From the NCBI GenBank assembly GCA_020350885.1, contig CP070727.1, forward strand, positions 449,038-513,037: a stretch of DNA of 64,000 nt, given 5' to 3'. The position numbers and the translations under genes are program-made. Numbering within the stretch: the stretch's first letter is position 1; each line of letters starts with the position of its first letter. The notes below the pieces were generated by a model. It saw nothing but the letters and a program-made list of their open reading frames with translations. It did not search any database and was not told the origin of the DNA. Shown piece by piece: positions 409 through 16,699 of this stretch. Origin of the DNA: a bacterium. Its GTDB lineage: Bacteria; Krumholzibacteriota; Krumholzibacteriia; Krumholzibacteriales; Krumholzibacteriaceae.

Positions 409-985
409 TTGTTATTTTTATCAAAAATTGGTTCTCAGCTGTTTTTCCTGATCGCAGCTGCGTGTTTCTTGTGGTCCGGCTCATGGTCATGGGCGGACTG
501 CTCGAAAGAGGGTGACCCCGCGCTCTATATCGGATTCGGTGCCGATAACGTCGAGGTTTCCAGGGGCCTGACCGAAGCCTGGACCCTCGGTGCCGCCAAC
601 TTCGGCTTCGTATCATCGAGCTGCACGGGCGGATTACCTTCATGACATCCTGACCTTCTTTTGGAGCGGCGCCGGCGAACCGACCGGTGAGGAGGACAGG
701 CTCCCGAAGGTCACGAGGCTCTTCCAGAACTATCCGAACCCCTTCAACCCGTCGACGACGATCAGGTTCGACCTGCCAAAGAAGGCGAGGGTGAAGCTCG
801 CCGTCTACAACGTGAAGGGCGAGCTCGTCCGCCTGCTGCTCGACGAGGAGGTCGATGCGGGCCGGAATGAAGTAGTCTGGAACGGTAACAACAACAGAAA
901 CCGCAGGGTGGGGTCCGGTATCTACTTCTACAAGCTCGAGACCGGCAACTTCACGCAATCGAAGAAGATCATTCTTCTTCGGTAA
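409..985 (+). pseudogene. Frameshifted remnant of a secreted protein with C-terminal secretion tail
   Basis: Two reading frames together make one gene relic. The first (TTG at 409 to about 645) encodes a signal peptide (LFFLIAAACFLWSGSWSWA) and the start of a mature domain. The second, in another frame and open to 985, encodes a complete FlgD-like/Por-type secretion tail with YPNPFNPSTTIRFDLP, a YNVKGELV core and the terminal GSGIYFYK...KKIILLR pattern. The middle domain is missing, because the frames meet only about 75 codons after the start. The likely original product was an exported or surface protein; what remains is the export signal at one end and the sorting tail at the other. I infer deletion plus frameshift. 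A sequencing error alone would not explain the very short mature region. The tail is about 85 residues and looks intact, so the loss may be recent. Confidence 0.7.
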
Positions 986-1283
986 CCTGGGTTTTCTTTA
1001 GGCGGGCACCAGGGTCGTCCACTGGAATACGGGCTTGCGATTGAGAGCAATGTCTAACTCTGCCGACTGCGTGCTGGAGATCTCGTTACGACGAAGAAGA
1101 AGGTGATACTCAGATAAAATCTGGGTGACAACACTTCTTAATCTAGTAAAATAATACCCGCGGCATATGCAGGATCCCACCTGCAAACTGTGCATTTCTC
1201 CGGTCGAGCGGTTACAATCTCGCAAAACGAATACTAAGGACCTCGGTCCAAAATATTCTTGCCCCACAGAAGGAGGGGCTACC
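986..1283. other. Intergenic region before the PHP-ATPase gene
   Basis: No recognised gene. A 95-codon open frame runs on the minus strand (998-1285) but has no family signature. The region is more AT-rich than its surroundings from about 1080 to 1160 (a TCTAGTAAAATAATA stretch), which would suit a promoter for the downstream gene. The ribosome binding site AGGAGG lies at 1271-1276. Confidence 0.4.
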
Positions 1284-3293
1284 ATGACTGTGATAAATGA
1301 AAATTATCAGAAAATCCTGGCGTCTAAGTCAGGAGCGCAGTTCTTCAAGGCCGACCTCCACGTGCACACGCCCGCCTCTGGGGACGCCCAGGCGAAAAAC
1401 AAGTACAACTTCAAATACGATATCGCGAATATCCCGAAGAGCAAGGAGCGTGCAAGGGAATTGGCGGCCAAGATAGTGGATGCGGCAATTAAGAAAGGAC
1501 TGAGGTTGATCGCAATCACGGACCACAACACTCCGAGCAACACGCACCCGGAAGACCTGACGAACACCTGGTATCAGCTCATACGTAACGCCGCCAGGGG
1601 AAAGGATTTGTGCGTGCTGCCCGGTGTCGAGATCAGCACGGACGATCTGCATGTCCTGGTCATACTGGATCCGAAGGAGGATGAGCCGGCCGCCTACATG
1701 ACGCACCGGATCAACTTTCTCCTGAAGGACTGCAAATTCACCCTCGATGACTACGGCGACTACAGGGCAACAGGGATGTCGAGCCTGTTCGATGTGATGC
1801 ATTATATCGAGGAGCTCGGTACGGAGTGCATTGCCATCCCCGCTCATATAGACGGTGGCAAGAAAGCGATGCTCAGTGTTTACAAGGAACCTAGCAACGT
1901 GTTCAACAAGCTGCTGAACCACTCGAACCTCAACGCCGTCGAGGTCGTGAAGGAGACAACACCGTCGAAGAAGAAGCTTGGCGGCAAGCGCGGAAAGATC
2001 GTACAGGAATATTTCGACAAGATGCGTGACGAAGATCGCTCACCTCTCGCCTACATACAGAATTCGGACGGTCATTCGATCAGTGAGATCGGTAAACGAT
2101 TCTCGTACATCAAGATGGGTGAGCCGAGCTTCTGGTCCCTCAAGAATGCCCTCGAGGATCCCGAAACACGGATACGCATGCCGGGCTCATTCAGCGAGAC
2201 TACAGAAACAACACGCATCCTTGGCATTGCCTTTCGCAGGCAGGGGGGAACCTGGAACCACGTGGCATTCAATCCGAACCTGAACTGCATCATCGGCAAG
2301 AAAAAAACACAGAAGTCCGCGATCATAGACATCATCATGTACGGTTTGGATCGATTCGAGGGAGCAGGCAACGGAAGCGGCCCGGCTGACGAGGAAAAGG
2401 ATCTCATCAAACACAAGTACCAAGTGAACGTGTTCATCGGGAAAAACAATAACACGTACTGCTACTCCAGGAAGGGCGCTGGCAAGCCCGAGACCTTCAC
2501 ACTCAATAACGGCTCATTTACTAAATTCGCCGGAACACCGCAGCTCGAGCTCCCGAGAAAATACAACCACGAGATAATCGAGGAACGGTTCGCAAAGAAG
2601 ATCGGTCTCATGGATTTCCTCGACAGGCACATCTTCGCAAACAAGAAAATAAACTCACTCCTGGACAGGAGGAACACGCTCCTAGGCGCCCTCGAGGCGA
2701 AAAAATTTGGCACAAATGATCCCAAGATGAAAAAACTCCGCAAGACATGCAAGAGCCTATACGATGAGAGGAAACGCGTTCTTGACACCTCACTCAGCTT
2801 GTACGGGAAGGATGTCTTCAGGGTCAAGGTGGCCAAGGGAAAATGGAGCACCGGGACTAAAAAGGAGGATTTCTACGACAAGGCGTCCATGACGGTTCGC
2901 GTGCGCTCCCGCCATCGTTCACTGAATACTCTTAACACCGGTGAGAAGAACGCGATCATCATGGTTCTTCTCATGAACGAGGATGCATTCGGTCCGCTGA
3001 TCATCGACGAACCGGAGCAACAACTCGATGTCGCTTCGATCGTATCGATACTGGTCCCGAGAATCCGTAAGTTGAAAACCCAGCAGCAGATCATATGCGT
3101 GACGAAAGACGAGCATATCATTCTTTCCGGCGATGCCGAGCAGGTAATCGCCACGCAGTCGGAGAAGGATGTTGAGGTCGTCACAGGGGATGTAATGAAC
3201 AGGGATATGCAGCACCAGATCCTGGAAATATTCGAGGGTAGCAGAGGTGCGATGGAGGACAAGACACGGAAGATCCGCAGCATCCTCGAATGA
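1284..3293 (+). CDS. PHP phosphoesterase fused to an ABC/SMC-like ATPase (TrlF/Ppl-like)
   Basis: The product is 669 residues. Residues 20-270 are a PHP domain with the metal-ligand motifs DLHVHTPAS (24-32), ITDHNT (78-83), GVEIST (114-119), IPAHID (185-190) and NSDGHS (260-265). Residues 305-669 are an ABC/SMC-like ATPase: Walker A region IIGKKKTQKSA (336-346), signature-like LNTGEKNA (550-557) and Walker B PLIIDEPEQQLD (571-582). The usual Walker A is GxxxxGKS; here the second glycine is Gln, but Lys344 and Ser345 remain. Proteins of this build are called TrlF-family ATPases, and the anti-phage protein Ppl has the same PHP plus ATPase plan. The stretch between Walker A and the signature is only about 200 residues, so the coiled-coil arm is short. 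The start at 1284 is chosen for AGGAGG eight bases upstream; an in-frame ATG at 1167 lacks one. The gene stands alone between two tail relics, which suggests an insertion site. A defence role is inferred. Confidence 0.75.
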   Translation: MTVINENYQKILASKSGAQFFKADLHVHTPASGDAQAKNKYNFKYDIANIPKSKERARELAAKIVDAAIKKGLRLIAITDHNTPSNTHPEDLTNTWYQLIRNAARGKDLCVLPGVEISTDDLHVLVILDPKEDEPAAYMTHRINFLLKDCKFTLDDYGDYRATGMSSLFDVMHYIEELGTECIAIPAHIDGGKKAMLSVYKEPSNVFNKLLNHSNLNAVEVVKETTPSKKKLGGKRGKIVQEYFDKMRDEDRSPLAYIQNSDGHSISEIGKRFSYIKMGEPSFWSLKNALEDPETRIRMPGSFSETTETTRILGIAFRRQGGTWNHVAFNPNLNCIIGKKKTQKSAIIDIIMYGLDRFEGAGNGSGPADEEKDLIKHKYQVNVFIGKNNNTYCYSRKGAGKPETFTLNNGSFTKFAGTPQLELPRKYNHEIIEERFAKKIGLMDFLDRHIFANKKINSLLDRRNTLLGALEAKKFGTNDPKMKKLRKTCKSLYDERKRVLDTSLSLYGKDVFRVKVAKGKWSTGTKKEDFYDKASMTVRVRSRHRSLNTLNTGEKNAIIMVLLMNEDAFGPLIIDEPEQQLDVASIVSILVPRIRKLKTQQQIICVTKDEHIILSGDAEQVIATQSEKDVEVVTGDVMNRDMQHQILEIFEGSRGAMEDKTRKIRSILE

Positions 3294-3342: not shown

Positions 3343-3414
3343 TTAACGAGTAAGAGTCATCTTCCTAACGAACTCGGCGCCGTCGGCCCGGAATCTATAT
3401 AAATAGACAAAGGA
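3343..3414 (-). pseudogene. Orphan C-terminal end of a secretion tail
   Basis: Read on the minus strand, this ends SFVYLYRFRADGAEF followed by VRKMTLTR and a TAA stop. That matches the last beta strands of the Por/FlgD-like tail in the intact proteins of this window (GLYFYRLRAG...RKMLLVR). Upstream in the same frame the similarity stops at once: no NPFNP motif and no start codon. It is the 3' stub of a deleted gene, lying between the PHP-ATPase and the acyl-CoA synthetase genes. The call rests on one short but quite specific pattern. Confidence 0.6.
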
Positions 3415-15163: not shown

Positions 15164-16699
15164 TTACTCATAATAGCTCTTCCATTCGGCGACCTTCTTC
15201 TCGATATCAGGGGCGCTGGTATCACCCGGGACAAGCCGCAGGTATTCCTGATACACCTCCATCGCATTCTTGTAGAGTGTCGCCTCCTCATACATTCTGC
15301 CGAGCTCCTTGTAGACCCAAGGCATGTCCCGACGCACCCGGTCCTCATCCATTCTACGGAGCTTCTCGAGTGTGGTAAGCATTCCCTGCTCGTTCTCCGC
15401 CAGCTTATGGGCTCTGTAGATAGCGGTTTGAAGGGCGAAGTCTTTCGGTCGTATCTGGGCTACCCTGTTGAAATAGGTAATTGCATCGTAGGGGCGCTTG
15501 GCATTTAGATAAAATACCCCTCGTTGGAAGTCCATTTCGACGGCTGGTATGACCTTCGTCAGGTCGGGGGTCTCGAGGACAGCCGTACCCGCTTCGATCT
15601 TGTCGCCAACGGCGAGCACACGGGCAAGCTGAAAGAACCCATTCAGGTAGGCGCCATCGAGAGCGTACGCCTCGAGGAGCGCCTGCCGACTCTCTATCCC
15701 TCTTTCAGCGAATCCACGCGCTACAGCCAGCGCGAACCAGAGGCCCGGATCGCGGGTATACTTCTCGACTAGTTCTTCATAGACCGCGATTGCAGGCTCG
15801 TAGCGCAACGCGACCAGGGAATCCTCCGCCACCATCATCTTCGACCACTTCTCGAAGACGGGCTCCCGTAAATAGGAAGGCTTAGTGAAGGCATCCCGCA
15901 TCACCCTGCCGAAGAACCTGATATCCATCGGGCAGAGGCCGCTCTGTGTGCACAGGTTTATGGTGACCATCCTCGTGTGCAGCCCTTTACCCCTCAAAGC
16001 TTCGGCGAACTTCAAGAGTGATCTCGTGCCGGTCTGGTACGAAGGATCCTGTGCCCGGAGTCCAACGAAGTAAGCGAGATCGATGTCCAGGATTATGCTT
16101 TCCCCCTCACCGATCTCCATATCCTCGAGCCTCGTAATCGTGATGGGCAGTCCCGTCAATGTGCCTACGATATGGCTGCCGGACGGTCGAAGATCCTTCA
16201 AAACCGATTCCGGAAAGCCCCTGCGGGTCATCAGGAATGTCTTAAAGACCTCGATCGGCTGTGACGTGGCTGGTTGATTTGAAGGGATCACCCACACGAC
16301 CCGCTTGAAGAACTCCGCCCTGAAGCCCAAGTTCACGAATCCCCCACCTTTGAGGGATGGGGCGAGTTGGTCGACGATCGCCGTGTTGCCGCGCTTAAGA
16401 TGCTCGCCGGCATTCCGCAGATCTTGCTCGCTGCTTGCAGCGAACATCCGCATTCCATCGGATGTATCGATATGCACGAGAACATCGACCTGTACCTTCC
16501 TTGCCGACCAGAGCTTGAGCGTCTGGGTATCGTTTTCGACCAGGAAGACATCCTTGAGTGCATCCTTCCCCGCTACACCAGCCCGCTCTCCGCCCCCGCA
16601 ACCCGCGTGACCTAAAATGAGTAATGCACATACGAACATCACCCGGAGCAATAAACACCATTGAAAGGACCTGATGACGCTAACCGCCTTCTCACACAT
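15164..16699 (-). CDS. TPR-containing exported lipoprotein with a UPF0489-like N-terminal region
   Basis: 511 residues. An N-terminal hydrophobic stretch (CLLLRVMFVCALLILGHAGC) ends in Cys followed by GGG, as in lipoproteins, though His at -3 is unusual. Residues 60-260 contain VLVHIDTSDGM, VVWVIPSNQ and ILDIDLAYFVG in an order recalling UPF0489/arginase-fold proteins (HxDxHxD and DxDxDYF), but with several metal-ligand positions changed. From about 300 onward there are tetratricopeptide repeats (e.g. EPAIAVYEELVEKYTRDPGLWFALA and KNAMEVYQEYLRLVPGD). A periplasm-facing scaffold built around a dead enzyme fold is one reading. Transcribed as a single gene 111 bases upstream of the efflux adaptor. 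Confidence 0.55.
   Translation of the reverse strand: MCEKAVSVIRSFQWCLLLRVMFVCALLILGHAGCGGGERAGVAGKDALKDVFLVENDTQTLKLWSARKVQVDVLVHIDTSDGMRMFAASSEQDLRNAGEHLKRGNTAIVDQLAPSLKGGGFVNLGFRAEFFKRVVWVIPSNQPATSQPIEVFKTFLMTRRGFPESVLKDLRPSGSHIVGTLTGLPITITRLEDMEIGEGESIILDIDLAYFVGLRAQDPSYQTGTRSLLKFAEALRGKGLHTRMVTINLCTQSGLCPMDIRFFGRVMRDAFTKPSYLREPVFEKWSKMMVAEDSLVALRYEPAIAVYEELVEKYTRDPGLWFALAVARGFAERGIESRQALLEAYALDGAYLNGFFQLARVLAVGDKIEAGTAVLETPDLTKVIPAVEMDFQRGVFYLNAKRPYDAITYFNRVAQIRPKDFALQTAIYRAHKLAENEQGMLTTLEKLRRMDEDRVRRDMPWVYKELGRMYEEATLYKNAMEVYQEYLRLVPGDTSAPDIEKKVAEWKSYYE

What the first reader, a model, noticed from the sequence alone, without database searches (positions are those of the whole stretch)
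1284..3293. PHP-ATPase with a broken Walker A glycine, possibly an anti-phage protein
The build (PHP domain, ABC-like ATPase) is that of TrlF-family proteins and the Ppl anti-phage protein, but the ATPase P-loop has Gln for the second conserved Gly (GKKKTQKS), while Lys, Ser, signature and Walker B stay intact. The arm between the two ATPase halves is short (about 200 residues). The gene stands alone between two relics of secretion-tail genes, a sign of a variable, insertion-prone site. A compact, possibly slow or non-hydrolysing member would be new.
Basis: partly seen in the sequence, partly recalled or inferred. Interest (0 to 1): 0.65.

Follow-up and report, generated by a model that had tools for sequence, protein, structure and literature searches.

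The report
Compact PHP nuclease-like protein, crippled ATPase
This gene encodes a rare, shortened cousin of the TrlF/Ppl anti-phage proteins whose predicted DNA-cutting (PHP) half looks intact while its ATP-using half has lost at least four conserved motif residues, so it is probably a PHP enzyme riding on a dead or ATP-blind motor; a role in phage defence is not shown.

Summary
Window 1284-3293 (+) encodes a well-formed 669-aa protein: PHP domain plus SMC/Rad50-like ATPase head (AlphaFold pLDDT 85, pTM 0.87). All ten inspected PHP metal-ligand positions are intact. The second P-loop Gly is Gln, whereas 121/121 deduplicated TrlF/Ppl/Spaf relatives have Gly. P-loop to signature is 209 residues (others 331-559, median 480). 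It is not a lone oddity: a Phycisphaerae fragment (45% identical) shares the altered H-loop, Q-loop and Walker B, most conserved (77%) exactly there, and a Planctomycetota protein (34%) is equally compact but keeps the P-loop Gly. The window protein falls below the curated TrlF, Spaf_1101 and Ppl cut-offs. No defence genes were found near any of the three. Best reading: a rare compact branch whose ATPase head is a pseudo-ATPase scaffold around an active PHP enzyme. Anti-phage function is untested. New variant of a known kind.

The parts
1271..1276 (+). Shine-Dalgarno-like AGGAGG, 7 nt before the ATG at 1284
   Evidence: sequence
1284..3293 (+). gene for compact TrlF-like PHP-ATPase, 669 aa (P0001)
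   Evidence: AlphaFold pLDDT 85.2, pTM 0.87
1332..2192 (+). PHP domain (residues 17-303); D24 H26 H28 D80 H81 E116 H123 H188 D262 H264 all as in family
   Evidence: best solved match of this part is endonuclease EndoQ 5zb8_A, Z 19.2, rmsd 3.1, 224 aligned
2295..2318 (+). Walker A / P-loop GKKKTQKS (residues 338-345), Gln343 for the second Gly
2568..2570 (+). Q-loop position, His429 (Gln in 121/123 relatives)
   Evidence: strand-to-helix junction in the model
2643..2804 (+). stub arm: two short helices (454-473, 480-507) in place of the long coiled coil
2931..2945 (+). ABC signature region LNTGE (550-554), Asn551 for Ser
2997..3029 (+). Walker B and D-loop LIIDEPEQQLD (572-582); Glu576 where the family has Gln
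3099..3119 (+). H-loop VTKDEHI (606-612), Lys608 for His
   Evidence: same Lys in Phycisphaerae homologue
590..985 (+). truncated upstream ORF ending in a Por_Secre_tail sorting domain (relic; not part of the system)
3343..3411 (-). about 22-codon fragment resembling a secretion-tail end (relic, by eye)

Best explanation
A compact pseudo-ATPase PHP phosphoesterase, most likely a nuclease acting on DNA or RNA ends. Shown: an intact PHP metal site on an EndoQ-like fold, joined to an SMC/Rad50-type head whose coiled coil is cut back to a helical stub, and whose nucleotide-handling residues (P-loop Gly, Q-loop Gln, signature Ser, H-loop His) are replaced. Inferred: the head does not hydrolyse NTPs and probably binds them poorly or not at all, because the equivalent P-loop Gly to Ala change already gives nucleotide-free small GTPases (own knowledge: RhoA G17A, Ras G15A). 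Inferred: the head persists as a folding and dimerisation platform or nucleic-acid clamp for the PHP site. In Ppl, NTPs bound to the PHP and NTPase domains inhibit the exonuclease until phage depletes the nucleotide pool (review PMC12904381). By that logic this protein would be an NTP-insensitive version, restrained by something else such as substrate availability or expression.
For: All ten PHP metal-ligand positions are as in the family; the PHP part matches endonuclease EndoQ at Z 19.2. Four ATPase motif residues that are 96-100% conserved in relatives are replaced, while the fold is predicted with confidence and the head matches Smc at Z 21. Not random decay: a homologue from another phylum (L016) keeps the same Lys H-loop, His Q-loop and DEPEQ, and identity peaks at 77% over residues 559-580 and 603-624, against 45% overall. 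A second compact member, P0013, also lost the Q-loop Gln, signature and H-loop His. The three group together (SH-aLRT 96; window + P0013 98 without the fragment).
Against: Lys344, Ser345, Asp575 and Glu576 survive, and P0013 keeps a canonical GKKETGKS, so nucleotide binding may persist in the branch. Walker B of the window protein has the classical catalytic Glu, which the rest of the family lacks. No activity is measured; a PHP domain could hydrolyse a small phosphoester rather than nucleic acid. The only full-length compact relative is just 34% identical, and its C-terminal lobe alone does not group with the other two, so its motif losses may be independent.
Confidence: 0.5

Rival explanations
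1. The head still binds a nucleotide without hydrolysing it and works as a sensor that holds the PHP nuclease off or on, as reported for Ppl, with altered specificity or affinity.
For: P-loop Lys/Ser and Walker B Asp are kept; P0013 keeps a full P-loop; the family as a whole already has Gln at the Walker B catalytic position in 115/115, which suggests binding rather than fast hydrolysis is the family's business; Ppl is inhibited by bound NTPs (PMC12904381).
Against: Gln343 is expected to block the phosphate-binding loop; Q-loop, signature Ser and H-loop are gone too, so neither Mg-nucleotide coordination nor a nucleotide sandwich is expected.
Confidence: 0.25
2. An ordinary TrlF/Ppl-type anti-phage NTPase-nuclease in which the substitutions are tolerated.
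For: Same architecture; 90% of the query covered by TrlF relatives such as the K. pneumoniae plasmid protein; several annotated relatives adjoin BREX or restriction-modification genes.
Against: Below the TrlF, Spaf_1101 and Ppl cut-offs; no defence genes near any of the three compact loci; four catalytic-motif residues lost.
Confidence: 0.12
3. A gene in decay: a horizontally acquired TrlF relative losing its ATPase by drift between two gene relics.
For: Flanking secretion-tail relics; no copy in 19 other genomes of the same family and only one distant relative in the phylum sample.
Against: Full open frame, ribosome site, uniform coding signal in five segments, intact PHP site, and conserved altered motifs across phyla.
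Confidence: 0.08
4. The Gln is a sequencing or assembly error in an A-rich stretch (AAGAAAAAAACACAG).
For: A homopolymer of seven A lies just before the codon.
Against: The frame is open on both sides, so a single indel is excluded; Gly would need at least two substitutions in the codon; the other motif changes are independent and three of them recur in a homologue.
Confidence: 0.03

Closest known systems
TrlF family AAA-like ATPase (NCBIfam NF045780; trlF of the Photorhabdus trl operon, PMC7554251)
   Same: N-terminal PHP domain, then a split SMC-like ATPase in one chain; 25-30% identity
   Different: Scores 250 bits against a cut-off of 350; 669 aa against a 944-position model; no long arm; P-loop Gly, Q-loop, signature Ser and H-loop His lost; no trlG/trlR partner seen nearby
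Ppl anti-phage protein (NF042955; PADLOC Ppl)
   Same: PHP exonuclease plus NTPase in a single gene; 132 bits, 93.5 bits in PADLOC
   Different: Far below the curated cut-off of 1000; compact; predicted NTP-blind, whereas Ppl is reported to be NTP-inhibited (PMC12904381)
Spaf_1101 family AAA-like ATPase (NF045781)
   Same: Same domain order and the next shortest arms (349 residues in the sampled member)
   Different: 172 bits against a cut-off of 475; canonical GGRGSGKS, LSLGQ and TH motifs in the sampled member
EndoQ PHP endonuclease (PDB 5zb8)
   Same: PHP fold, Z 19.2 over 224 residues
   Different: No SMC-like head; EndoQ is a damage-specific endonuclease

Membership tests
TrlF family (NF045780) | curated whole-protein score of at least 350 bits | tested here: not met
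   250.1 bits; a bona fide member scores 502
TrlF family (NF045780) | PHP domain with intact metal ligands | tested here: met
   ten positions conserved; EndoQ fold match
TrlF family (NF045780) | long arm between the ATPase halves (331-559 residues in 114 relatives) | tested here: not met
   209 residues
TrlF family (NF045780) | complete ABC motifs (GxxGxGKS, Q-loop, SxGQ, DQPE, TH) | tested here: not met
   GKKKTQKS, His429, NTGE, DEPE, TK
Ppl anti-phage protein | NF042955 score of at least 1000 | tested here: not met
   132.1 bits; a Vibrio Ppl scores 1445
Ppl anti-phage protein | anti-phage activity | not testable with these tools
   needs plaque assays
Ppl anti-phage protein | defence-gene neighbourhood (supporting, not defining) | tested here: not met
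   no PADLOC hit among ten neighbours of two loci; metabolic genes by the third
Spaf_1101 family (NF045781) | curated score of at least 475 | tested here: not met
   171.7 bits
SMC/Rad50-type ABC ATPase head (fold) | head fold | tested here: met
   5xns_A Z 21.1, rmsd 6.7, 309 aligned; 4i99_A Z 20.8, rmsd 3.7, 274 aligned

The most novel reading that the evidence does not exclude
A separate, rare branch of PHP-SMC-like proteins in which the head has become a true pseudo-ATPase, with conserved new residues (TKDE in place of THNAN, DEPEQ in place of DQPED), and controls a PHP nuclease without any nucleotide, unlike the NTP-inhibited Ppl.
Probability: 0.35. Interest if true: 0.6.

Novelty: new variant of a known kind. 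Interest (0 to 1): 0.45.

Why it matters
Ppl is reported to be a phage-activated nuclease held off by cellular NTPs. A natural relative with an intact PHP site but a broken nucleotide site, conserved across phyla, is a ready-made test of whether the ATPase head is a nucleotide sensor, a motor or only a scaffold. It also shows the family extends to forms that current profile cut-offs miss.

Tried and rejected
A single-sequence scan of genome contigs and viral contigs with P0001 found nothing. Alignment-guided scans found generic TrlF relatives and one close fragment. Three viral scans aimed at the query or the compact branch were empty. Searches of the window's family, its phylum, Planctomycetota and two other phyla (1,450 genome searches, overlaps counted) gave only the three compact members. 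The P-loop of the Phycisphaerae homologue could not be read: its contig starts inside the gene and the rest is not in that assembly. Sequencing error, frameshift and plain decay were weighed and judged unlikely. An integration site at a tRNA was considered: the tRNA 3' end upstream of the window points away from the gene and is half hidden by withheld bases, and ARAGORN calls nothing there. No direct repeats bracketing the gene stood out. No Ppl-like protein was found by sequence in the PDB copy.

Full report
WHAT IS THERE. Window 1284-3293 (+) is one open frame of 669 aa with AGGAGG 7 nt before its ATG. Codon use fits the neighbouring genes in all five segments tested (0.31-0.39 bits per codon; the other five frames are below zero). 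It is single copy in a one-contig, 4.13-Mb genome.

DOMAINS. NCBIfam places it nearest TrlF (250 bits), Spaf_1101 (172) and Ppl (132), but below every curated cut-off (350, 475, 1000). AlphaFold2 on an alignment of 57 sequences gives pLDDT 85.2 and pTM 0.87. Residues 309-651 match SMC/Rad50 heads (Smc 4i99_A, Z 20.8, rmsd 3.7, 274 aligned) and residues 19-303 match the PHP endonuclease EndoQ (5zb8_A, Z 19.2, rmsd 3.1, 224 aligned). Where relatives carry a long coiled-coil arm, this model has only two short helices (454-473, 480-507).

THE MOTIFS. I aligned the protein with TrlF, Ppl and Spaf_1101 relatives from plasmids, phages, genomes and IMG/VR (123 non-compact rows after removing duplicates). 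All ten PHP metal-ligand positions agree with the family (D24, H26, H28, D80, H81, E116, H123, H188, D262, H264). Walker B is DEPEQ, while all 115 relatives read DQPE with Gln at the position that is the catalytic Glu in SMC and ABC ATPases. The P-loop-to-signature distance is 209 residues against 331-559 (median 480).

A SMALL BRANCH, NOT A SINGLE ODDITY. It has the same H-loop (VTKDEYI), Q-loop His and DEPEQ, but keeps the signature Ser (LSTGKK); its P-loop lies off the contig. Identity between the two is highest exactly over the altered Walker B and H-loop region (77% over 559-580 and 603-624), which speaks for selection on the altered form. A third member, from a Planctomycetota genome (G428, L141, P0013), is 34% identical, has an even shorter spacing (162), a normal P-loop GKKETGKS, and its own losses: signature RRSLKR, Walker B DSPEES, H-loop Ser, Q-loop position Pro. 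The three form one group (SH-aLRT 96), and the two full-length ones do so without the fragment (98). The C-terminal lobe alone does not resolve the third, so its losses may be independent. No other compact member appeared in the further genome and viral searches.

CONTEXT. Neighbours of the window gene are a truncated Por_Secre_tail ORF, two AMP-ligases, a MauE/DoxX protein, a rhodanese and, upstream, a pyruvate carboxylase B-like protein. The Phycisphaerae gene lies by nifU and ilv genes; the Planctomycetota gene by amidohydrolase, ThiF, FeeM-like, ferredoxin-type and PNPase genes. PADLOC finds nothing among ten neighbours of the window and Planctomycetota genes. By contrast, several ordinary TrlF relatives on plasmids adjoin BREX, methylase or restriction genes. 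So the defence idea is inherited from the family name and not supported at these loci.

MECHANISM. Shown: intact PHP site, intact head fold, broken nucleotide-handling residues, stub arm. Inferred: no hydrolysis, and little or no nucleotide binding by the window protein. The Gly before the P-loop Lys is needed for phosphate binding, and the corresponding Gly to Ala change in small GTPases gives nucleotide-free protein (own knowledge). A review states that Ppl is a 3'-5' ssDNA exonuclease held off by NTPs bound to both its PHP and NTPase domains and released when phage depletes the nucleotide pool and makes 3'-OH ends (PMC12904381). Applied here, the window protein would be an NTP-insensitive PHP nuclease whose head serves as platform or clamp. 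That it is a nuclease at all, and what restrains it, is not shown.

VERDICT. A genuine, rare, compact variant of the TrlF/Ppl kind with a degenerate ATPase; the Gln is real as far as sequence can tell, but it may be private to this genome rather than a trait of the branch. Anti-phage function is open.

Noticed in passing
family alignment, position 576 of the window protein: All 115 ordinary TrlF/Ppl/Spaf relatives carry Gln where SMC/ABC ATPases have the catalytic Walker B Glu (DQPE), a natural counterpart of the EQ mutation; the window protein and its Phycisphaerae relative have Glu instead.
   Followed up: partly
L017, L018, L050 (actinomycete genomes): A separate group with P-loop GGTGAGKS has Arg for the H-loop His (ATRSPGLV); L075 has Tyr. 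Loss of the H-loop His has happened more than once in this family.
   Followed up: no
L005 1343-2470 and 2586-3959 (Vibrio phage 10N.286.54.E11_PE001, class Tectiliviricetes): A TrlF-like PHP part and ATPase part are annotated as two neighbouring ORFs in a 14-kb phage genome, next to an integrase: either a split pair or a frameshift.
   Followed up: no
L107, L108, L109, L114, L116, L120, L122 (IMG/VR contigs): A well-supported group (SH-aLRT 100) of longer TrlF-like proteins, open frames of up to about 1,070 aa, that in this sample is found only on viral contigs.
   Followed up: no
L143 about 15853-15901, minus strand (just upstream of the window): The 3' end of a tRNA, probably tRNA-Phe by eye (CTGAAAATCCGTGTGTCGGCGGTTCGATTCCGTCCCTTCCCACCA); its 5' half falls in bases that read N, so ARAGORN does not call it.
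   Followed up: partly
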